From Candidatus Poseidoniaceae archaeon (GTDB lineage Archaea; Thermoplasmatota; Poseidoniia; Poseidoniales; Poseidoniaceae): 64,000 bases of DNA. The notes beneath the pieces were generated by a model that made no database searches, was not told where the DNA came from, and worked only from the letters and a program-made list of their open reading frames with translations. The DNA lies in assembly GCA_016777125.1 (NCBI GenBank), contig JADHSC010000009.1:1-64000 (forward strand), read 5' to 3'. The translations under genes were made by a program, and so were the position numbers. Numbering within the stretch: the stretch's first letter is position 1; every line of letters begins with the position of its first letter. Of the stretch, positions 10,145 through 23,022 are shown in pieces.

Positions 10145-10774
10145 CTAGGGGAATGAAATTGGTTCATCACCATTTTGCCATTGCTTATGTTTGACCATGC
10201 ATGCTTTGAACAAATGACTCTCGAGGATACCTTCAAGCCAATTGAGGAGATGTGGCAAGGGAAGTTGGTCAAACCACGCTCGATTTGTATTCGCAAATTG
10301 GCGAACAAATGGAGAAAGAGCGAGGTCTGCTAAACTGATAGAATCACCACAAAGGTAGGCTTGATTGGATAATCGCTCTTCATACATCTTTAGAATCGAT
10401 ACTGCATGTTCCCTGTGTTCCTCAGAAGAGAGGACATTCTCGTAACGATTGTTATACTTGTATCGATCAAGATGATGTTTGAAATCACCATCATTGACAT
10501 CAATAAGATCCTTCCAATCACCAACAAGCCATGATTCATCTAAACTCCATAGCATAATGTCGAGACTCTCTTCAATAACTGTTCCATCTGGTAAGAGAAG
10601 AACAGGTACAGTTCCCTTTGGAGATATTTCCATCATGTGTTCAGGACGATCTCTAAGGATGACTTCTCGAAGTTCAACTTCCACATCAGATTCAAGTAAG
10701 GACATTCTTGCTCGCATTGCGTAAGGGCATCGACGGAAACTGTAGAGAATCGGATTCGACATTTCATCACTCAT
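10145..10774 (-). CDS. glutathione S-transferase family protein
   Basis: YSFRRCPYAMRARMSL...SPKGTVPVLLLPDGTVIEESLDIMLW thioredoxin-fold N-domain and helical C-domain; start moved to ATG overlapping the upstream stop. Confidence 0.85.
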   Translation of the reverse strand: MSDEMSNPILYSFRRCPYAMRARMSLLESDVEVELREVILRDRPEHMMEISPKGTVPVLLLPDGTVIEESLDIMLWSLDESWLVGDWKDLIDVNDGDFKHHLDRYKYNNRYENVLSSEEHREHAVSILKMYEERLSNQAYLCGDSISLADLALSPFVRQFANTNRAWFDQLPLPHLLNWLEGILESHLFKACMVKHKQWQNGDEPISFP

Positions 10775-13193
10775 ACTTTCGTATCTTAGCTGGAGCGAAG
10801 AAAGTGAATCCACCGATGATAGCGACAAGCACAAGGATGCTGATGATCCAAATGGTTGTAGTCGAGATACCTTCATCTGAACTTACATCATCGATAACAG
10901 TTGATTCAATCAGTATGAGATTCACGGACCCCTCATTGTTGGTTTCATCACCCTCATCGATGATTTCACCACCATCAACAATTGCTTCAATTCGAAGCAA
11001 TTGGCCTTGATATGGTGCTTGGAATTCACATGTAGCAATTGACATTGCTCCTGGCTCAAGGGTTGTAATAGTAGCAATATCACCCACCATTCCATTCACA
11101 GTACAGCGAATCGTAACCATTTCAGCATTGATAAAGCCATCATTTGCCACATAAACTCGAGTGGTTACATAAGAGCCAAGTTCGACTTCAGAGAGTTCCA
11201 CAAAGGTCCCATCTGCAGAACCTTCCCCTACAACAACGGATTCAATCCGTAAGTCAGGGAGTGAACGCACGTCCAAGTCCAATACTCTGTCAACACATGT
11301 CGTTTGATCACAAAGTGTCAATTTAACAGATGTATATCCGGGTGTTGGAGCTGTAATGAGGAGAGAACTGTTGATCAAATCGACTTCAACCCACGTCTTA
11401 TTACTAGAGATTGTGAGATCTGCAGGTATTGTATCAACATCGGACCAGATGAAACTCAATGGTGTAGCAACAGCATGTTCAACTCGAACTAATGAAGGGA
11501 ATTCATTCAGTACAGGTGCATCATCGATCGAATCTACGATGATGTTGAACGATTCCACATGACTGTTCCCTGCTTCATCAGAAACGGTCAACAAAATCTG
11601 AGCAGAACCTGATTGTTCTGAAAGAAGAGATACTCGAACTTCACCTTGGTTCAGACTTACGTCAACCAAATCAGGTTGGGAGTTTTCAAATTCTACATTT
11701 AGAAGTGTTGGGTCTGTTCTGTCATCAGTACAACGAGTCAGTAATGGAACGAATATTCCACCACCATCTTCTGAAAGTTGCTGGTCTCCAACAAGTTGGC
11801 ATATTGGATCCTCATCATAGAAAATATCGAATCCACCACTCACATCTATAGAATTTACTTCCAATGCAGTTGTACTCGCACTACCATCTGAATCCCACGT
11901 AAACCATGTTTTGACCATGATGCTAAGTTCAGTTTGCCCTGGACTCATGTAAGCCCCGATTGGAATCTGATGATTGAACTGACCGACGGAAACCGGGAGA
12001 TTTGCTACTGTGCTTCCACCTACAGATAGAGTCCATCTGGAATAGTTTCCATCAATTCCAGAACCATCCCCGTAGATTCTACCTGCAATACTCAATGTCG
12101 GATCATTAACGTCGACTCGAACTGAGGTGATACAAGATGTATCTGTGAGCACACGCACCTTGAGATATTCAGTCATTGGCAAAGCATCCGTGTTATGCAT
12201 TGCAAAGGCAGAAAAGGATTCGCCATCGGCAGATGTTGCGTATTGAACGCTTACGTTTCCTTCAGTCCCAGATTCATTCACATCGAAGTGAATGCGTCCA
12301 AAATACTGCTCTGCTGGACGTTGAAGAGCTGCGCTTGTCCAAGAGCCAATGGTACTTGTATCGGTTGACTCCAAGCCACATACAGAAAGGGACATGCCAT
12401 TGTATTCACCTTGACTCATATCGATTTCTTGAATGGGCATATCGTGCCCAGAAGCTGTTGAAACTGCTTGGGCTACTTCCCCGCCGTACCATGCTGTTTC
12501 CATCGTCACTTCGATACCTATAGCATCCAATTCTAAACGAGCATCATCGGTCTGACCTACTGAAACATAATCCATGGTAAGGCCAATCGACGAGAGCATG
12601 GACCAAGACCAGTCATCGACTGAACTTATGCTCAATCGATATGCAGAATTATTGATGTGATCAACTGCTCCATTCGTATTTGACCATGTGCGCATGATAT
12701 CAGTCCCATTCGACCAATCCATAGAAAGGCGAACGGAATCAATGCTCAATGAATCTGTAATCTTGAATGCTACGAGAACATCAACAGATGTAATGACATA
12801 TTGGGTTGAAGCTGAAAAATCAAAGCCATCAACACTCATGACAGGACCAGTTGACCAAGCAAATAATCCATCTGGAGAGCCGACTACATTGTCTGATTCC
12901 GTCGGACTGTTCGTACCCCAATAGTCCATGGAGTCAAGATTCTGTGGACGCTGATGAACCATTGTAATTCGTTGGTCAGCGACCATAGTATCGGTGTATG
13001 TCGCAGGTTGAGAAGTAAAGGACGTCGTCGCCTGGAGCGACCAATCTGCTGGATTGGTGAGTTCCCCTTGCGGGAACAAATCATACTCTGCCGTTTCATG
13101 GACACTACGAGCACTCGCTGGATTGAGCGTAGGTACGAGGAGCACACCGAAAAACATCATACATAGAAAGACGGAAGTTAACTTGGCTCGCAT
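10767..13193 (-). CDS. secreted/membrane-anchored surface protein with CARDB-like domain and C-terminal TM
   Basis: Signal peptide MRAKLTSVFLCMMFFGVLLVPTLNPASA; LPDLRIESVVVGEGS...DEGDETNNEGSVNL; C-terminal TM TTIWIISILVLVAIIGGFTFF. Confidence 0.85.
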   Translation of the reverse strand: MRAKLTSVFLCMMFFGVLLVPTLNPASARSVHETAEYDLFPQGELTNPADWSLQATTSFTSQPATYTDTMVADQRITMVHQRPQNLDSMDYWGTNSPTESDNVVGSPDGLFAWSTGPVMSVDGFDFSASTQYVITSVDVLVAFKITDSLSIDSVRLSMDWSNGTDIMRTWSNTNGAVDHINNSAYRLSISSVDDWSWSMLSSIGLTMDYVSVGQTDDARLELDAIGIEVTMETAWYGGEVAQAVSTASGHDMPIQEIDMSQGEYNGMSLSVCGLESTDTSTIGSWTSAALQRPAEQYFGRIHFDVNESGTEGNVSVQYATSADGESFSAFAMHNTDALPMTEYLKVRVLTDTSCITSVRVDVNDPTLSIAGRIYGDGSGIDGNYSRWTLSVGGSTVANLPVSVGQFNHQIPIGAYMSPGQTELSIMVKTWFTWDSDGSASTTALEVNSIDVSGGFDIFYDEDPICQLVGDQQLSEDGGGIFVPLLTRCTDDRTDPTLLNVEFENSQPDLVDVSLNQGEVRVSLLSEQSGSAQILLTVSDEAGNSHVESFNIIVDSIDDAPVLNEFPSLVRVEHAVATPLSFIWSDVDTIPADLTISSNKTWVEVDLINSSLLITAPTPGYTSVKLTLCDQTTCVDRVLDLDVRSLPDLRIESVVVGEGSADGTFVELSEVELGSYVTTRVYVANDGFINAEMVTIRCTVNGMVGDIATITTLEPGAMSIATCEFQAPYQGQLLRIEAIVDGGEIIDEGDETNNEGSVNLILIESTVIDDVSSDEGISTTTIWIISILVLVAIIGGFTFFAPAKIRKYE

Positions 13194-13288
13194 GGTTTGC
13201 ACATTCAGCGGTAGCATTTCAATGAACGGGTTTCTCGATTGCTCGTAGGATTGTTGAAATACCTCGCTCATGACGGCTAATTCTCTAT

Positions 13289-13365: not shown

Positions 13366-13968
13366 TTATTCTAATTCAGACGAGTCAATGACATGACCCA
13401 TACGGTGAATTTTGGTTTGTAAATAGTCGAGATTTTCTTCACCGACACCGGCAATGAGCGGGACTTTCTCTGCTACTTCAATACCATGTTCCTCGAGTTG
13501 TTTGACTTTGTCAGGGTTGTTCGTAAGCAGTGCAACTGAATTGATACCAAGATCCGAAAGCATTGTAGCAGCAATTCCGTAATCTCTTCCATCTGCAGGA
13601 TGGCCGAGCATTAAATTGGCGTCAAGAGTATCAGCACCTCGATCTTGGAGATGATAGGCTTGAATCTTAGCATGAAGACCAATGCCTCTACCTTCCTGAC
13701 GCAGATACAACAAGCAGCCGTATCCATTGGTTGCTATTGCAGACAATGCCGCATCCAATTGAGGGCCACAGTCACATCGTAATGATGTGAATGCGTCTCC
13801 TGTCAAACATTCTGAATGAACTCTGAGAAGAACAGGATCAGGTCCTTCCATCGATCCCATCATCAAGGCAACATGGTCAAGACCTGTTTTTTCTTCATGA
13901 TGGACATGGATGTCAAACAGACCCCACTTTGTTGGCAATTTTGCTGAACTTGGAACATCGGACACCAT
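13366..13968 (-). CDS. ribA: GTP cyclohydrolase II
   Basis: [38 protein letters not shown]. Confidence 0.94.
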
Positions 13969-14217
13969 TTACATCACCTCAATTAGAAATGTGAATTCAC
14001 CTTGACTTTGTTTAACGTCCAGGATATGATGAGGTGTTCTCTCGATCATCATAGGAATATCATGCAGTGTTTCTGGGTCACTCGCCAGCACTTCAAGAAC
14101 TGACCCTTCAGCCATCGAAGAGAGTGCTTGCTTCGCTTCTGCAACAGGGACGGGGCAAAAGAAACCAAGTACATCAAGACGATGCGTGGCCTGCTTCTTT
14201 GGCTCATCCATACACAA
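13969..14217 (-). CDS. TusA-like sulfurtransferase family protein
   Basis: LDVLGFFCPVPVAEAKQALSSMAEGSVLEVLASDP. Confidence 0.88.
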   Translation of the reverse strand: MCMDEPKKQATHRLDVLGFFCPVPVAEAKQALSSMAEGSVLEVLASDPETLHDIPMMIERTPHHILDVKQSQGEFTFLIEVM

Positions 14218-14304: not shown

Positions 14305-15363
14305 ATGGCTGCTTCCGCCTCGACGAAACATAACGATGACATGAGTTGGTCCGAAGTGGGCCAACTTGGTCTTCAATATGGGAAGATTCCATTGGCTTTA
14401 CTTGCAGTTGAAGCCCTCTATTGGTTCATTACGCAACCATCGGATACACTTGCATTTATTCAGGTTACAGAAGCCTACATCTGGAACGAAGTGACACAAC
14501 TAATGTTTGGTGAATCTGCTTCCGTACTATCCGAACACAGCGGTTGGATGACTCGGATAGATTTCTATCATGAATCATTTCCAGGACAATTCGATTCGGT
14601 CGGTCTTTACGTCTCAGACGAATGTGCTGGAATTCATGAGATGATCTTCGTTTCAACGCTCGTTTTGATGACAGACGGTGTTTCACAACGTCAACGATTC
14701 AAAGCAGTGGGAGTGATGTGTGCTCTTGTATATGTCCTCAACATTGTTCGTCTCGTAGCCTTCTATCCAATCGCAGTAGACGGTTGCCTTGATAATCCAA
14801 ATCAAGCTGATTGCTTGAACAATATGTGGGAATATCACAACTTTGTGTACAAGTGGGGTTTCCTCATTGTTCTTTTACTCATGTGGCTTGTATGGTTCCG
14901 ATATATTGGTGCAAGTTCACGCACACTCCAAGCTAGCCAAGAAAAGAAGGAACAATGGAGAATCATTTTCAGGAGACGATGGTCCAAATTGCACTATGGA
15001 TTACTCATTACTATGGTTCTGTTTTTCGTGATTTCATGGATGTGGATTAATGCCAACGCTGATGCGACTAATGCCAAAGAAGTGATTGATTATTGCGAGT
15101 TTAGCGAACTTACAACTGGAACCTGTATCGAAGCCCAAGCCAATTGGGACAATGCGATTCAAGGAGCTTGGTCTTTTGCAGTTCTGGGATTAGTTCTTGG
15201 AACAACTGGAATCTATGAGATTGAGCGGAAAGATGCTTCTGGAGAATGGCCAGAGCGTCCAACAAAGAAAGTGGAAGAACCTACCCAAGCAATTGAAACC
15301 AAATCCAAAGAAAAGCCAAAAGGCTCATGGAGAAGTCGTTCAAATTCTTCAGAAGAAGAATGA
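14305..15363 (+). CDS. exosortase/archaeosortase family protein
   Basis: Polytopic membrane protein with Cys (DECAGIHEM), Arg (NIVRLVAFYP) and His (YHNFVYKWGF) arranged as in exosortases/archaeosortases. Confidence 0.82.
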   Translation: MAASASTKHNDDMSWSEVGQLGLQYGKIPLALLAVEALYWFITQPSDTLAFIQVTEAYIWNEVTQLMFGESASVLSEHSGWMTRIDFYHESFPGQFDSVGLYVSDECAGIHEMIFVSTLVLMTDGVSQRQRFKAVGVMCALVYVLNIVRLVAFYPIAVDGCLDNPNQADCLNNMWEYHNFVYKWGFLIVLLLMWLVWFRYIGASSRTLQASQEKKEQWRIIFRRRWSKLHYGLLITMVLFFVISWMWINANADATNAKEVIDYCEFSELTTGTCIEAQANWDNAIQGAWSFAVLGLVLGTTGIYEIERKDASGEWPERPTKKVEEPTQAIETKSKEKPKGSWRSRSNSSEEE

Positions 15364-16782
15364 TCAGAGAACAGATGCTTGAACGATTGCATCACCCATT
15401 GGATGAACGTTAAGCGCTTTCATAGCCAATCCAAGTTTGCTACTGTGGATAGAAACGACTGTAGAATCACCATCATAACTAACATCACCAATAGCGAGAG
15501 AATCACAACGAATATGTTGTTCAAACCATGTTGCTATGGTTCGAGGTGAACCAAGTTCTTCCCGCGTTGAATGAATCCTGATCGAAACAAATCCATACAC
15601 GTCTGCAGTTTCACCGTAATCATCTTGCTTCTTGACTGGATCTCTGTCAACACCTTCTGGAAGATCAGGTGCTTCTGAATCAAGGATATGCAAATTGTAG
15701 GTGGCAATGATTTTGTTCATCTGAGGAGCATCATCCTTTGAGACAAGACTCCATGCTTCTCCATGACGGCCGATTCGACCAGTTCGTCCAATCCGATGAA
15801 TGAATGAATCAATATCGGAAGGTACGTCATAGTTGACCACGAGGGTAATGCCATCAATGTCAATACCACGAGCAGCTACGTCTGTAGCGATAACGGTCTT
15901 TATTTCGCCTTTACGGAATGAATCGATAATACGCTCTCTTTGATTTTGATTCAAATCACCATGAAGACTTGCAACATCGAATCGATGCTTCTTCAAGCGT
16001 TGAACAGCTAAGTCAACCATACGCTTTGTGTTACAGAAGACGATGCTCTGGTCATCATCACCCATGCGAACGAGAAGGCGTCCAAGGGCCCAGAGTTTGT
16101 TGGTACGGCCAATAGAAATGTTGAACAGATCGATTGGAGGGACATCCAACTCTTCTTGATTGGTCATAACGAATTCAGGTGTGTTCATGAACTCGTTTGC
16201 AGCATCAAGAATCTCTTGAGGGAATGTTGCTGAGAAAAGCAAGGTTTGCTTTCGAGAAGTTGTTCTCTCAAGAATCCATATGATATCTGGAAGGAATCCC
16301 ATATCGAGCATGCGGTCTGCTTCATCAAGACAAAACATCTGAACCATTGAAAGATCGATGTGACCTCGTTGGCTCATGTCCATGACACGTCCAGGAGTTC
16401 CAACGATGATGTCAACACCGTCATCGAGTCCACGTGCTTGCTTTTCGAGATCTGTACCACCATAGACGGTCATAATCTTCAACCCAGAATCGCCTTGAAG
16501 TTGCGTCATTTCTTCAGCAACTTGTTGTGCAAGTTCACGAGTTGGAGCTAAGAGGAGTGATTGGAGTGTACCGCTTGCCTCACAGGATTCCAAGATTGGC
16601 AAACCAAAGGCTGCAGTCTTTCCTGAACCTGTTCTCGCTTGACCAATGACATCACGGCCGCTTCTGGCCAATGGAATTGTGTCTCGCTGAACTTCAGTAA
16701 GACATTCCCATCCCATTGCAGTAATTGCATCCATGAGATGCTCAGGTAGGTCGAGGGAATCGAATCTCGTTTTGGTGAACAT
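15364..16782 (-). CDS. DEAD-box RNA helicase
   Basis: ARTGSGKT, PTRELAQQ, LDEADRMLDMGF, SATF, HRIGRTGR. Confidence 0.96.
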   Translation of the reverse strand: MFTKTRFDSLDLPEHLMDAITAMGWECLTEVQRDTIPLARSGRDVIGQARTGSGKTAAFGLPILESCEASGTLQSLLLAPTRELAQQVAEEMTQLQGDSGLKIMTVYGGTDLEKQARGLDDGVDIIVGTPGRVMDMSQRGHIDLSMVQMFCLDEADRMLDMGFLPDIIWILERTTSRKQTLLFSATFPQEILDAANEFMNTPEFVMTNQEELDVPPIDLFNISIGRTNKLWALGRLLVRMGDDDQSIVFCNTKRMVDLAVQRLKKHRFDVASLHGDLNQNQRERIIDSFRKGEIKTVIATDVAARGIDIDGITLVVNYDVPSDIDSFIHRIGRTGRIGRHGEAWSLVSKDDAPQMNKIIATYNLHILDSEAPDLPEGVDRDPVKKQDDYGETADVYGFVSIRIHSTREELGSPRTIATWFEQHIRCDSLAIGDVSYDGDSTVVSIHSSKLGLAMKALNVHPMGDAIVQASVL

Positions 16783-16785
16783 GTT

Positions 16786-16832
16786 GCTCCTTCCGTTTCA
16801 TTCGGTTCAGGCCACCGAAACGGAAGTGGCCT
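16786..16832 (-). promoter_or_regulatory. structured leader of the DEAD-box helicase gene
   Basis: Transcript-sense AGGCCACTTCCGTTTCGGTGGCCTGAACCGAATGAAACGGAAGGAGCAACATG contains pairings AGGCCAC/GTGGCCT, TTCCGTTTC/GAAACGGAA and TTCGGT/ACCGAA next to SD GGAG. Confidence 0.6.
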
Positions 16833-16842
16833 CCACTACACT

Positions 16843-17046
16843 TCAAAAGTTCTCGCGCTCTTTCTTTTCTGCCTGGAGAATACCCAACCAGTACTTCTTT
16901 GCGTTGTCACGGTTGAGTGGTCGACGCATTTGTCGAACGTGCTCTAGGATGTATTGTCGAAATTTAAGAGCCTTAGTACGGTTCACTCCTTTTGGTGTGA
17001 TTCCTTCCCAAAGTCTGTCGAATTGTAATTCTTTGTCGTCCATCAT
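16843..17046 (-). CDS. hypothetical protein (67 aa)
   Basis: Basic, charged small ORF between HEAT-repeat and helicase genes on the same strand. Confidence 0.6.
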   Translation of the reverse strand: MMDDKELQFDRLWEGITPKGVNRTKALKFRQYILEHVRQMRRPLNRDNAKKYWLGILQAEKKERENF

Positions 17047-17096: not shown

Positions 17097-18311
17097 TTAT
17101 GGGTCTTGAGACAAATCATCCTTCGATTCGAGTTGAGGGCGGAGATCTAAGGGTGCAGATTCTAAGCCAACAGCTTGTCCTTGAGCCTGGGCAACTTCCC
17201 GTTCCAATGCAGGAACGGGTAAGGCTGGAGCAAGGAAAGAATTCTTCTGAGCCTCAGTACCTTCGATTGAAGCATCAAAGGTGTATTCATTGAGCATCTT
17301 CTTGAGTTCAGCATCGGTTTCAGTTTGAAGCAACTCAGTAGCAATAAGTCGCAACTTATCCTCAACCAAGAGCATTGGAAGCATCTCAATACATGACCTG
17401 CGAACTTCAACATTCGTGTGCCGGGTACCATTCATAATCAGTGTTCGAGCACGTGAATCGTCAGTATCCATCGAACGAATGGCCCTCAACGCATTGTTAC
17501 GAACTTTCGCATCAGCGTCGAGAATGGCTCGCTCAGTGAGCATTATGGCAATACGTGGTTCCTTCTTCGACAGGGAAGCAAGAGTTCCTGAAGCATTTCT
17601 CCGAACATCAGGGTCTGCATCATTAAGGGCCCAAGAAATCAAATCCCAACCCATGGCTCCAGCTCTTTGTACAATATTTCTTAACAACTTTGAGGCTTTT
17701 CTCCGTAGCATTACATCATCGACAAGAAGTAACTCGTCTATGTGATCACATGCAACTTCAGGCCATGTTTCAGTAAGACCTTTCAAACCTCTCCATGCAG
17801 GTTCGCTTCGAACCTTAAGAGGTGAGCGAAGTTCCTGCGCCAAAGAACTATCAATTCCAGACGGAAATGTTGGTGCAGAATCTTCTAGACATTGACTCGC
17901 TGCTTTTCGTACAGTTTCGTCATCATCATCAAGGAGAACTGAAAGCCAATCAAATAGTTCATCTGAACGTTGCTCACCAACTATTGGGAGAACTTCGAGT
18001 GCTGCAATTCGAATGCTTGGTTCATCCGATTCCAATGCTTTGAGCAGACAGGCGTGTGCTCTATCAGCCCAAACGCCCTTCAATCTGCCAAGACCTCGGA
18101 TGCCATCTTCGCGAGGCAGCGTGTATCGGCGACCACCCCAATCGATCTGAAGTTGTGGAATTTCTCCATTTGCAAGAGCGAGAATATCTTTTCTGGAACA
18201 TTCCTGCCACGGACCAGTGACCTGTTTTTTAGTGCCTTTCTTACGTGGCTGACGCCCTGTGGCAATCGGAAGCCCTGTGCGAGGGTCGCGTGCAACGTAG
18301 TCTTTTGCCAT
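17097..18311 (-). CDS. HEAT-repeat protein
   Basis: Repeated helical pairs with VRRNASGTLASLS, VRKAASQCLEDSA; start at MAKDYVARDPRTG preferred. Confidence 0.8.
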   Translation of the reverse strand: MAKDYVARDPRTGLPIATGRQPRKKGTKKQVTGPWQECSRKDILALANGEIPQLQIDWGGRRYTLPREDGIRGLGRLKGVWADRAHACLLKALESDEPSIRIAALEVLPIVGEQRSDELFDWLSVLLDDDDETVRKAASQCLEDSAPTFPSGIDSSLAQELRSPLKVRSEPAWRGLKGLTETWPEVACDHIDELLLVDDVMLRRKASKLLRNIVQRAGAMGWDLISWALNDADPDVRRNASGTLASLSKKEPRIAIMLTERAILDADAKVRNNALRAIRSMDTDDSRARTLIMNGTRHTNVEVRRSCIEMLPMLLVEDKLRLIATELLQTETDAELKKMLNEYTFDASIEGTEAQKNSFLAPALPVPALEREVAQAQGQAVGLESAPLDLRPQLESKDDLSQDP

Positions 18312-18417
18312 ACACCAATCGAAGGTTGCAGTCGCCCAGAAGATATGAACTTTCACAATGAACAGGTCTGTCCAAACATTGGCAATGCTCAAGAATGTGA
18401 TGAAACACAGACGTGCT

Positions 18418-21400
18418 ATGAGGAAAGGCAAGATTGTACTTCATTTCATCATAACGGGATTCATACTTCTTGGAACAATCCAACCAAACCTATCTCTATT
18501 CGGAACACAGCACGATGAAGTAGAGCATGCCAGTGGCGAGGAAACAACATTTACCGACCCTGGATTTCTTCTTAACAAAGTTGCACGTAACGCAACTATC
18601 TCAGAATTAGAACTTGTACGCCCTGATATCACATGGTCGCCTACAACTGGAGGAGGCCTTTTGATTACCAGAGCCCATGGGTGCATGGCACACGATACAA
18701 CAAACGATCTCGTCTACCTGATGGGGGGGAAAACAGATCCTGACCCTCAGCAACAAAGCGATGAGGCTGCAACGAATTTGATTGAAATTTTCAACATTTC
18801 AACAGAAACTTGGTCCCTCTCTTCGTCAAGTATGCCAAACAGTCAACAATATCATGAATGTGTGCAAGTTAATGACAAGATATACTCGATTGGTGATTGG
18901 TATCCAGGTTCAAGCCCTGCACAAAAATCAACTGGACAAATGCAAGTCTATGACATCTTAACTGATTCATGGTCTACAACACCACCTGCCATGCCTGCAA
19001 CGAAAGAAGTGGGTAATTTTGGAATGGCTGCCATTGGTAGCAAAATTTACATCGCTGGAGGCGTACAAAACGCCTCGGCTAATGATGTTACAGATCGATT
19101 ACTGGAATACGACACACTTACCGGATTATGGACTGAATTAGCGAATATGTCTTACAAGCGATTTGCCTTCCCATTGGTTGAATATCACGGGAAGTTGTAC
19201 GCCTTCGGAGGCTTAGAAGGAGCCTATTCATGGTCAGGGCAACCTGTCCATAATACATCTGAAGTCTATGATCCAGCAACTGATACATGGACAAATCTTC
19301 CAAATATGACCTTCCATATGTTTGGAATGGCTGCTTCTGTACACAATGATGAGATCGTGTTAATTGGCGGCCATGATAAGAATGCTAAGTCAAAGGAAAC
19401 CTGGGGATATGTTCCTGAATCAAATCAATGGCGCCGTCATGACGACCTCGCAATAGGCGTTTTCGACTTAGCTGCTATTGATGTTGATGGATTAACTGTC
19501 TTTGCTGGCGGTGACATCTCAGGTTCACCGTATTTTTCTTCCTGGGGAATCGTCTACTTGGATGAAAGCGAAATCGCTCCACGAATCGAGAATCACACAG
19601 GTTGGATTTCATCTCCTGTGAACGTACTATCGAGCACTGAACATGGCTCAGGCTCGCTCATGTGGATGAGCTTAGCAGGTACAGAGCCAACTGGAACCAC
19701 ATTAGGGCTTCAGTATAGAATTTCCAACTCAGAATCAGGACTGGCCAGTGAAACGTGGAACCCAGTCGACACCACGAATCCTGCAAATCTCGCACTTCTT
19801 GGAATTGGAAATCATTCGCTTTCAGGCATCGCTGGAAGCGACAATGGACTCATGGAATACAGAATACAGATGTTCACTGAGGAAGTCCAAGATTGGATTA
19901 TACCAGATTTGGACTCCATAAAATGGGGAGCTGAAGAAGCTTCATTCGCTCTGAACAATCCAGTTGCGATCCAACCAAATGCACCACAACTCACATTTTC
20001 AACACACCATGCTGCAATGGAAGATCAACTGACTTCACCTGCAGTGTTTGAATTTGCAATGATTAAGGCAACTGCAGAAGGTTTCTTTTATCCAAATGCT
20101 GAATGGACAACGATTCGATTATCATCAGATGGATCGAATACAGTAATTAGCGACACGGATGGTTTGTTGAAAACGAATTCAATAACGATGCCAAACCCAC
20201 TCAATGGTGTCCAAACAGTCAACTGGGCGATGTCCTTCAATGATATGGATTCTGACAAGGTCCTCATTCGTACTTCGACCGAAGGGGTTGCAACCTCAAC
20301 ATATACTCACCCAGTACCTGTCGATATTGACCGTACTGTATCGGTATACATCAATGAAGTTACATCGAATTTCTCAACTCAAGGCGATCAGTCAATCGAG
20401 ACGAACGAAGTCATCATCGGCGGCTCGACACTCACCGTATCAGTGGATCATGGATATACAACCAGTGGACTTCGGCCATTGTCGAACAACATCAAAGTGC
20501 GAGTCAATGTCGATATTGCTGGAGAAACACCTGGTGATGTGAACCAACCAATCGCGTGGTACAATACTTCAACATCGTATGTAAATCTCAATAGTAATCA
20601 ACACACTGAATTCGTAACTACGCTTCCCTCCAACATATCAGGATATGCTTACATAACAATCGATGCCCAAACAATCGATGCTATAACGCTGCAAACGGAT
20701 TCTCAAATATCCACATTTACCTTGGATTCCTTTGCCCCGATTCTCGCAACAACATCACCCATTTCCGAATCATATCTGAACGTTGAACAGAATCGTAGCG
20801 TCGAGATCAATATATTTGATATCGCTGGATTCGATGAAGATGCAATAGAAACATGGGCATGGATGAAGGGTGTCCATGATTTGAATTCAAATGGTCTTTC
20901 AGAACCAAATGAACGAATCAATGTTCCAAATGATGTCATCAATATCGGAACCGCTTGGCAAATCAACTTCAACATCAACGAATCAGGAAACCAAGAGGGT
21001 GATGCGATTCAAATTTATCTTGAAGGAACCGACAAAGATGGACGCTTAATCGAAACAGACGGTACTGAACAGGGTCATTTGTACTGGACCAGCCGATTAC
21101 CAACCAAGGCTGAAATCGTATCCGTTGAGGAGCGATATCCAACAGAGAGCGGTATTCCACAACTTCTCCAACCGACAAAATATGCAGGGTGGAACGTTAT
21201 TGTTCGAGATGGAAACGGATTAAGTGATTTGAATACTGTTCGTCTTTCACTCGGAGGAGATGATGACCTTGGCATCCTCTTTAGAATGAACGAGGGTTGT
21301 TCAGCTATCGATGCAAGACTTACCATTACAGATGCATGTATTGGAACAGTCATTGCAGATGAACTCCATATCCAATTTGATTTTGAGGTTATGTGGGATC

Positions 21401-23022
21401 TTACTTCGAACGGAGTGAATGTTGGACTCATGGAAATACGAACGTATGATACAGATGGATTCATGTTCCATAACGAGAACTCGGCGTGGACATTTGATCG
21501 TATAATCGACATCACGATTAATTCTATAAAAGATGTGACCGGGACTTCAACCACAGAAAGTATCACCACTGATTCCATCCTTGTAGCAAATGATTTCATT
21601 GAGATTCAAGGAACGGTGTTCCATTCCAATACCAACGAACCATACACTGGTTCCATCGCTTTGAGATGGGATGGAATGTTCCAAGTTTCATCATGGACAG
21701 GTGGGCAATCAATCCAAGTTAAAAATGGAGCTTTTACCACGACTTTCCAAGTCCCTGAATCAAGTGGAAGTATCTATGATGCTACACTTGAATTCTGGGA
21801 TCCTATTGAAATCGATAAATTCCTAGCAATGGACTTACCAGATATCAAAATTGACGCTGACGCTCCACTCCTGCTTGAGACCACCCTCAATCCGGTTTCG
21901 AGATATCATCTCAACAATGTCGAGATTGGTGCGAATATCGACGAGCCACAACTTTGGTCTGGAAACTTATCCGTAACTTGTCAGATTCGTTCAACGACGA
22001 TCAATTGGGAACCGATGGTCATGAATCGTCAACCGATCAGCGTCTTTGATGGTCGGACTCTGTTCTCGTTCAGATTTAATTTCTCAGAATCAGGACAACC
22101 AGCAGAACTCGGTTCTCAAGCCTCATTAAATTGCTGGGCAACAGGTTCGGATGATGCAGGTTGGCAGTTGATCGCCCAAGGTTCAAATTCTGAAGAAACC
22201 CCTTGGATTACTCTTCCACTTACCTCGGAAGGTCCTGATTTGCAAGTTACGAAGGTCTCCTTTGATGCTGATTTCATCGAGGGAGAGGATGTAACTGCTA
22301 CAATTCAATTATTCAACTCTGGTGAGCGAATTACAGAATCGTTCAACGTGAGTGTGTTTTTAATTCGTGGAGATACAACTGAACTCGTGGCGTTGAAACA
22401 ATACGATGGCCTCGATACATCTGAATCGACTAACATGCGTGCGAAATTCACAACGCCAAAATCTAATTGGAATCTTGAAGTGATTATTGATTCCAGCGAT
22501 TCGATTGCAGAATTAGATGAAGAAAATAATATTTGGAATAAAGACTATTCCTCAAGTGAAGAAGGATTCTCAACACTTGTTATTGCAGGTACTGCATCTG
22601 GAGTATTGGTGATCATACTCGGAATTGTTTTCCTTCTCAATCAAAGAAGAAAACCCATGATTGAAGAAACGGTTCAGGAGGAGGTAGGCCCTGAGGCACC
22701 TCAAGAGAAGAAAAAAGGCCCATCGAACGTATCCTCTTCCCCAAGTACATCATCACCAAAGAAAGGCCCGCCTCCTGCTAAGAAGAAAGTGCCTGAAATT
22801 TCGACTCAAACACCAGCAGAACAGGCTGCAGCCTCTTTTGCTGCACTTGATAGCCTCGCTCCAAATGAAGTAGAGACCCCAGAAAGAGTCGCTACGTGGA
22901 ATGATTTACCGAGCGGAGGAGAGTATGATTATACCGCTGATGGAACATTCTATGATGGCGTTGAATGTGGTCGTTGGAAACTCTTGGAAGATGGTCAATT
23001 CGAGAAAGTCGAAGAGCGGTGA
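18418..23022 (+). CDS. kelch-repeat beta-propeller surface protein with CARDB-like domain, TM and cytoplasmic tail
   Basis: About six kelch-like units (e.g. FGMAAIGSKIYIAGGV, VEYHGKLYAFGGL); CARDB-like DLQVTKVSF...ELDEENNIW; TM LVIAGTASGVLVIILGIVFLL. Confidence 0.88.
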   Translation: MRKGKIVLHFIITGFILLGTIQPNLSLFGTQHDEVEHASGEETTFTDPGFLLNKVARNATISELELVRPDITWSPTTGGGLLITRAHGCMAHDTTNDLVYLMGGKTDPDPQQQSDEAATNLIEIFNISTETWSLSSSSMPNSQQYHECVQVNDKIYSIGDWYPGSSPAQKSTGQMQVYDILTDSWSTTPPAMPATKEVGNFGMAAIGSKIYIAGGVQNASANDVTDRLLEYDTLTGLWTELANMSYKRFAFPLVEYHGKLYAFGGLEGAYSWSGQPVHNTSEVYDPATDTWTNLPNMTFHMFGMAASVHNDEIVLIGGHDKNAKSKETWGYVPESNQWRRHDDLAIGVFDLAAIDVDGLTVFAGGDISGSPYFSSWGIVYLDESEIAPRIENHTGWISSPVNVLSSTEHGSGSLMWMSLAGTEPTGTTLGLQYRISNSESGLASETWNPVDTTNPANLALLGIGNHSLSGIAGSDNGLMEYRIQMFTEEVQDWIIPDLDSIKWGAEEASFALNNPVAIQPNAPQLTFSTHHAAMEDQLTSPAVFEFAMIKATAEGFFYPNAEWTTIRLSSDGSNTVISDTDGLLKTNSITMPNPLNGVQTVNWAMSFNDMDSDKVLIRTSTEGVATSTYTHPVPVDIDRTVSVYINEVTSNFSTQGDQSIETNEVIIGGSTLTVSVDHGYTTSGLRPLSNNIKVRVNVDIAGETPGDVNQPIAWYNTSTSYVNLNSNQHTEFVTTLPSNISGYAYITIDAQTIDAITLQTDSQISTFTLDSFAPILATTSPISESYLNVEQNRSVEINIFDIAGFDEDAIETWAWMKGVHDLNSNGLSEPNERINVPNDVINIGTAWQINFNINESGNQEGDAIQIYLEGTDKDGRLIETDGTEQGHLYWTSRLPTKAEIVSVEERYPTESGIPQLLQPTKYAGWNVIVRDGNGLSDLNTVRLSLGGDDDLGILFRMNEGCSAIDARLTITDACIGTVIADELHIQFDFEVMWDLTSNGVNVGLMEIRTYDTDGFMFHNENSAWTFDRIIDITINSIKDVTGTSTTESITTDSILVANDFIEIQGTVFHSNTNEPYTGSIALRWDGMFQVSSWTGGQSIQVKNGAFTTTFQVPESSGSIYDATLEFWDPIEIDKFLAMDLPDIKIDADAPLLLETTLNPVSRYHLNNVEIGANIDEPQLWSGNLSVTCQIRSTTINWEPMVMNRQPISVFDGRTLFSFRFNFSESGQPAELGSQASLNCWATGSDDAGWQLIAQGSNSEETPWITLPLTSEGPDLQVTKVSFDADFIEGEDVTATIQLFNSGERITESFNVSVFLIRGDTTELVALKQYDGLDTSESTNMRAKFTTPKSNWNLEVIIDSSDSIAELDEENNIWNKDYSSSEEGFSTLVIAGTASGVLVIILGIVFLLNQRRKPMIEETVQEEVGPEAPQEKKKGPSNVSSSPSTSSPKKGPPPAKKKVPEISTQTPAEQAAASFAALDSLAPNEVETPERVATWNDLPSGGEYDYTADGTFYDGVECGRWKLLEDGQFEKVEER

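What the first reader, a model, noticed from the sequence alone, without database searches (positions are those of the whole stretch)
16786..16832. DEAD-box helicase leader with three overlapping alternative stems ending at the Shine-Dalgarno
In transcript sense the 60-nt intercistronic leader reads AGGCCAC-TTCCGTTTC-G-GTGGCCT-GAACCGAAT-GAAACGGAA-GGAGCAAC-ATG. Stem A pairs AGGCCAC (16826-16832) with GTGGCCT (16809-16815). Stem B pairs its loop TTCCGTTTC (16817-16825) with GAAACGGAA (16791-16799), which runs directly into the SD. Stem C pairs TTCGGT with ACCGAA (16814-16819 with 16801-16806). A and B can form a partial H-type pseudoknot or switch. This looks like an expression platform (thermosensor, helicase-autoregulated leader or protein-binding site); function is inference.
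Basis: partly seen in the sequence, partly recalled or inferred. Interest (0 to 1): 0.65.

Follow-up and report, generated by a model that had tools for sequence, protein, structure and literature searches.

The report
Pseudoknot before archaeal RNA helicase gene
In a family of abundant surface-ocean archaea, the messenger RNA of one RNA-unwinding enzyme carries a tightly conserved knotted RNA fold ending at its ribosome-binding site, which most likely switches production of the enzyme and has not been catalogued before.

Summary
They are the two helices of one H-type pseudoknot: S1 7-8 bp, S2 about 7 bp, loop 1 of 0-3 nt, no junction loop, loop 3 of about 8-14 nt. It fills the gap between a conserved 66-aa ORF and a DbpA-like DEAD-box helicase in Poseidoniaceae (Marine Group II archaea). 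It was fitted in 109 of 113 helicase leaders, covering 10 of 11 genera. Both helices have compensatory changes: 11 of 15 pairs, and 29 inferred double events on a tree against at most 5 when partners are slid. There is one copy per genome, always before this gene. It is absent from the sister family (50 of 50) and from genus g2 (4 of 4), where the two genes nearly abut. Stem C is not conserved. No Rfam family or paper found describes it. Every column conserved at 90% or more is base-paired, and the helices are too stable to melt at sea temperatures, so a riboswitch or simple thermometer is unlikely. S2 overlaps or lies close to the Shine-Dalgarno in most leaders. Best reading: a cis-acting translational operator, probably autogenous through the helicase. 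Regulation is inferred, not shown.

The parts
16783..16842 (-). 60-nt intercistronic leader holding the pseudoknot
   Evidence: Sequence. Pseudoknot plus SD is 95.5% conserved in the genus, against 69.2% at helicase third codon positions.
16826..16832 (-).
   Evidence: helix 1 is 97.2% paired, 5 of 8 pairs with double changes; 15 double events in S1.
16824..16825 (-). Loop 1 (TT), 0-3 nt in the fits to relatives
   Evidence: Descriptor fits
16817..16823 (-).
   Evidence: helix 2 is 96.1% paired, 6 of 7 pairs with double changes; 14 double events in S2.
16809..16815 (-). S1 3' strand GTGGCCT
16800..16808 (-). Loop 3 GAACCGAAT; sequence not conserved, about 8-14 nt in most relatives
16793..16799 (-). 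S2 3' strand GAAACGG, abutting the Shine-Dalgarno
16787..16790 (-). Shine-Dalgarno GGAG
   Evidence: In most relatives the best SD match overlaps S2 or starts 0-5 nt after it.
15364..16782 (-). DEAD-box RNA helicase with C-terminal RRM-like (DbpA-like) domain, 472 aa
   Evidence: Pfam DEAD and Helicase_C. AlphaFold model of residues 396-472 has beta-alpha-beta-beta-alpha-beta order. Best PDB match is DbpA over 471 columns.
16843..17043 (-). Conserved 66-aa ORF immediately upstream, predicted all-helical, no known family

Best explanation
The leader of the helicase mRNA folds into an H-type pseudoknot whose second helix ends at the Shine-Dalgarno. While folded it hinders 30S binding or accommodation at the helicase start codon, so helicase translation depends on whether the knot is opened or clamped. 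The likeliest controller is the helicase itself: its C-terminal RRM-like domain (DbpA type) would recognise the knot when helicase is in excess over its normal RNA target and repress its own translation, in the way S15 (rpsO) and T4 gp32 act on their pseudoknots. SHOWN here: the conserved pseudoknot at RNA level, its position, its strict linkage to this gene, one clade of bearers, and the DbpA-like architecture of the product. INFERRED: effect on translation (about 0.7), autogenous control (about 0.4), and direction of control (repression somewhat more likely than self-activation by unwinding).
For: Both helices covary: 96.7% of cells paired, 11/15 pairs with double changes, 138 cells against 36 shuffled and at most 49 slid. 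On a tree from flanking coding DNA there are 29 double events against at most 5 slid. 113 G-U but 14 A-C cells show selection on the transcript strand. Each genome with a hit has one CM hit, adjacent to this helicase wherever the helicase start was also located. S2 overlaps or lies within about 5 nt of the SD in most leaders, and S2 ends 7-18 nt before ATG. Conserved columns are almost all paired. The bearers form one clade, 96/92. The product resembles DbpA end to end. The sister family and g2 have a 9-20 nt gap with no leader. Precedents: rpsO and S15 (PMC3858243); T4 gene 32 (PMC3014915).
Against: No transcript, translation or binding data are held. RRM-like helicases without the leader occur in the sister family, so the domain does not require it. 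Pseudoknot-free folding predicts a nested stem B for this one sequence, and such a program cannot propose the knot at all. Most genomes were scored with stricter covariance-model filters, so further weak copies could be missed. Autogenous control rests on analogy only.
Confidence: 0.6

Rival explanations
1. Self-activation or helicase sensor: the helicase (or a general RNA-unwinding activity) opens the knot to allow its own translation, so expression reports unwinding capacity, for example in the cold.
For: The gene product unwinds short RNA helices by family, and S2 lies at the SD.
Against: Positive feedback gives no homeostasis by itself. No temperature data. The helices are stable at every sea temperature.
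Confidence: 0.2
2. The knot is bound by another protein, for example the conserved 66-aa helical protein encoded just upstream or a ribosomal protein, which sets helicase translation.
For: The small ORF is adjacent in every locus where both genes were found and is highly conserved (81% mean column identity) with a confident helical model. Conserved paired sequence beyond structure suggests a protein partner.
Against: The ORF is equally adjacent to the helicase in families without the leader. It has no recognisable RNA-binding fold.
Confidence: 0.15
3. Uncoupling or stability element: the knot starts where a ribosome terminating on the upstream ORF ends, and it insulates the helicase from translational coupling or protects mRNA from exonucleases, with no regulation.
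For: Stop-to-S1 distance is 8-13 nt in nearly all leaders. Relatives without the knot have near-abutting genes. It arose as an extra of about 45 nt.
Against: A simple hairpin would do; 29 compensatory events keep two interlocked helices. S2 is kept at the SD.
Confidence: 0.2
4. Recoding signal: the pseudoknot 8-13 nt after the stop codon stimulates readthrough or frameshifting of the small ORF.
For: Spacing resembles known readthrough and frameshift stimulators (own knowledge).
Against: Gap length is 0, 1 or 2 mod 3 in 29, 35 and 43 leaders; the helicase frame is closed inside the gap in 80 of 107; the small-ORF frame meets a further stop in 63 of 107. No obvious slippery site seen.
Confidence: 0.03
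5. Small-molecule riboswitch or RNA thermometer.
For: SAM-II, preQ1-I and SAM-V aptamers are also H-type pseudoknots ending at an SD (own knowledge).
Against: No unpaired column reaches 90% identity. The gene is not metabolic. There is no Rfam match. Single helices average -12.6 and -10.6 kcal/mol at 37 C, too stable to melt in sea water.
Confidence: 0.04

Closest known systems
rpsO (S15) translational operator of E. coli
   Same: An mRNA pseudoknot at the ribosome-binding site of the gene of an RNA-binding protein; the product stabilises it and repression is autogenous (PMC3858243)
   Different: Bacterial ribosomal protein. [quoted passage not shown] No sequence relation was sought or claimed. 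Autogenous action untested here.
T4/T2 gene 32 leader pseudoknot
   Same: A leader pseudoknot of coaxially stacked helices in the mRNA of a nucleic-acid-binding protein that represses its own translation (PMC3014915)
   Different: That knot sits far upstream (67 nt) and nucleates cooperative binding over an A+U-rich RBS; here the knot touches the SD and there is no A+U-rich tract. Phage against archaeon.
SAM-II / preQ1-I / SAM-V type riboswitches (from memory)
   Same: H-type pseudoknot whose last helix ends at the Shine-Dalgarno
   Different: No conserved unpaired pocket, no metabolic gene, no Rfam match
DbpA/YxiN-type DEAD-box helicases
   Same: Two RecA domains plus a C-terminal RRM-like domain; DbpA is the best structural match over the whole length
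   Different: About 32% identity; scores below the DbpA equivalog cut-off (377 against 524 bits). No such mRNA leader was found described for them in the searches made.

Membership tests
H-type (classical) RNA pseudoknot | Loop of hairpin S1 pairs with downstream sequence to form S2, both helices real | tested here: met
   Compensatory changes in both helices
H-type (classical) RNA pseudoknot | Short loop 1 over S2, no or minimal loop 2, longer loop 3 over S1 | tested here: met
   Fits: L1 0-3 nt (mean 0.9), L2 0 in nearly all, L3 mean 10 nt
H-type (classical) RNA pseudoknot | Coaxial stacking / folded three-dimensional structure | not testable with these tools
   Needs probing or NMR
Translational operator with autogenous control (rpsO / gene 32 kind) | Element overlaps or adjoins the ribosome-binding site of the regulated gene | tested here: met
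Translational operator with autogenous control (rpsO / gene 32 kind) | Gene product binds RNA specifically | tested here: inconclusive
   DEAD-box helicase with predicted RRM-like C-terminal domain; no binding data
Translational operator with autogenous control (rpsO / gene 32 kind) | Excess product represses its own translation through the element | not testable with these tools
   Needs reporter and binding assays
Any Rfam 15 family | Covariance-model match | tested here: not met
   No match up to E 5 in the window region, up to E 1 in ten relatives
Metabolite riboswitch (SAM-II/preQ1 kind) | Conserved unpaired ligand-pocket nucleotides | tested here: not met
   All columns at 90% or more are paired; the only unpaired column above 75% is the A next to the SD
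RNA thermometer | Helix sequestering the SD that melts near growth temperature | tested here: not met
   Predicted helix energies are large; melting itself not measured
Programmed readthrough/frameshift stimulator | Downstream frame open and in fixed phase | tested here: not met
   Phase mixed, frames mostly closed

The most novel reading that the evidence does not exclude
A lineage-specific archaeal regulatory RNA in which a DbpA-like DEAD-box helicase governs its own translation through a pseudoknot, with the enzyme's RRM-like domain or unwinding activity as the sensor: an autogenous pseudoknot operator in Archaea and for an RNA helicase. It replaced ancestral translational coupling to the upstream gene.
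Probability: 0.4. Interest if true: 0.75.

Novelty: new variant of a known kind. Interest (0 to 1): 0.62.

Why it matters
Few cis-regulatory RNAs are known in Archaea, and none was found described for Marine Group II, among the commonest archaea of the surface ocean and uncultured. This element has unusually clean covariation in both helices of a pseudoknot, a single target gene and a clear evolutionary before and after (near-abutting genes without it, separated genes with it). It therefore makes the question of how an RNA-remodelling enzyme senses its own level directly testable with a leader of about 60 nt and one protein.

Tried and rejected
Three-way switch with stem C: stem C is not conserved. 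Readthrough or frameshift signal: phase and frames exclude a fusion as a general function. Terminator: no T-tract follows the stems, and neither terminator-like site found nearby lies on this strand. Repeat family or mobile element: one copy in the genome, no second CM match better than E 6, no plasmid match. Known Rfam family: none. Literature searches on pseudoknot leaders, archaeal DEAD-box helicases and Poseidoniales found no description. The main text of Weinberg 2010 (104 motifs, PMC2864571) does not mention a helicase. Fold search of the small ORF found no match.

Full report
WHAT IS THERE. The window lies in a 1.87-Mb archaeal assembly. Close relatives in GTDB are named Candidatus Poseidoniaceae / Poseidoniales, one of them MGIIa-L2 (identity of genera by matching contig lengths is my inference). 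On the minus strand a 66-aa ORF (16843-17043) is followed by a 60-nt gap and a 472-aa DEAD-box helicase (15364-16782).

CHANCE. A descriptor for H-type pseudoknots gives the leader 41.6. None of 3000 dinucleotide shuffles reaches it (maximum 37.3), and no other place on either strand of the window scores higher. Pseudoknot-free folding gives z -3.3 for the 63-nt gap and -3.8 for the 50-nt element, with nested stem B as the minimum.

COMPARATIVE TEST. The leader was found by DNA similarity in 21 of 24 genomes of the genus. Helicase orthologues were then located in all 11 genera of the family, and their upstream regions were read. The pseudoknot fits 109 of 113 leaders: S1 mean 7.7 bp, L1 mean 0.9 nt, S2 mean 7.7 bp, L3 mean 10 nt. 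Examples: g1 GGGCCACC-TCCGTCTC-GGTGGCCT; g5 GGGTTGCC-a-CCGTCTC-GGCGACCC; g3 GGGTCACC-c-CCGTCCC-GGTGGCCC; g10 TGGGTGC-CTCCACTC-g-GCGCCCG, each followed by a matching S2 3' strand. Fits in g4 and g7 are weaker. In genus g2 (4 genomes, helicase only 43-45% identical) there is no leader.

COVARIATION. On a plain MAFFT alignment of 92 distinct leaders (A1; g4, g7, g8 and g10 left out), 96.7% of cells pair. 11 of 15 pairs have changes on both sides, and 138 cells have double changes, against 36 (sd 12) in shuffles and at most 49 in slid controls, whose pairing is at most 47%. On a tree built from flanking coding DNA, parsimony finds 29 double compensatory events (15 in S1, 14 in S2), 59 single changes that keep pairing and 21 that break it. 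Slid partners give at most 5 double events. Random re-pairing of stem columns gives a mean of 3.2 and a maximum of 13. 113 G-U cells against 14 A-C cells show that the minus-strand RNA is what is selected. Stem C pairs in 44.5% of cells, no better than a slid control. In the genus the knot plus SD is 95.5% conserved, against 69.2% at helicase third codon positions.

DISTRIBUTION. A covariance model of the leader finds one strong site in the own genome (E 2.8e-10; next E 6). It finds one site per genome in 129 of 319 genomes of the order, all in this family, and the class search lists none outside it at E 1e-5. Where both were located, the site adjoins the helicase start. In 50 of 50 loci of the other family of the order (presumably Thalassarchaeaceae, inferred) the small ORF and helicase are adjacent with a gap of only 9-20 nt and no leader; g2 has 13 nt. 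On the helicase tree the bearers are one clade (support 96/92). So the element most likely arose once, between two nearly abutting genes; loss in g2 or a basal position of g2 cannot be told apart.

POSITION. S1 begins 8-13 nt after the upstream stop codon (one exception), about where the leading edge of a terminating ribosome would lie (inference). S2 ends 7-18 nt before ATG, and in most leaders the best SD match overlaps S2 or starts 0-5 nt after it. The gap length is of mixed phase and the helicase frame is mostly closed inside it, so recoding is excluded as a general function.

THE GENE. Pfam gives the DEAD and Helicase_C domains and no known C-terminal domain. The AlphaFold model (mean pLDDT 87.7) adds a C-terminal domain, residues 396-472, with beta-alpha-beta-beta-alpha-beta order (RRM-like), and Foldseek's best match over the full length is DbpA. 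It scores below the curated cut-off for DbpA, so it is DbpA-like in architecture, not a proven DbpA. The upstream ORF is an all-helical small protein (pLDDT 91.6) without known relatives.

MECHANISM. Shown: a conserved RNA pseudoknot in the leader of one gene, ending at its SD. Inferred: the folded knot hinders initiation (about 0.7). Inferred by analogy with rpsO/S15 (PMC3858243) and T4 gene 32 (PMC3014915): the product binds it (about 0.4). A metabolite riboswitch is disfavoured, since conserved columns are almost all paired. A thermometer is disfavoured, since single helices average -12.6 and -10.6 kcal/mol at 37 C. Conserved base-paired sequence beyond what pairing needs suggests a protein partner.

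NOVELTY. No Rfam 15 match and no paper found in the open-access library. Leader pseudoknots that control translation are a known kind; this one is a new family, in Archaea and on an RNA helicase gene, hence a new variant of a known kind. Limits: literature in subscription journals was not searched, and no expression data were available.

Noticed in passing
16843-17043 (-): Small 66-aa ORF with about 81% mean column identity across the family, always directly upstream of the helicase, no family or fold match; predicted four helices. In many genomes of the sister family it carries an insert of about 20-35 residues in the middle.
   Followed up: partly
L053-L056 / L313-L316: Genus g2 helicases are far more diverged (43-45% identity) than in other genera of the family and lack the leader; accelerated evolution or a basal position.
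   Followed up: partly
14305-15363 (+): Exosortase/archaeosortase family protein (TIGR04178) convergent with the helicase; large surface-like proteins lie nearby (10767-13271 -, 18358-23022 + with a Kelch-like stretch).
   Followed up: no
13366-14217 (-): GTP cyclohydrolase II (RibA) with a TusA-like sulfurtransferase gene directly upstream of it.
   Followed up: no
17097-18431 (-): HEAT-repeat protein upstream of the small ORF.
   Followed up: no
L228 (CALDQY010000154.1): Public record titled 'uncultured Rhodobiaceae bacterium' carries this Poseidoniaceae locus: probably a mislabelled or contaminated assembly.
   Followed up: no
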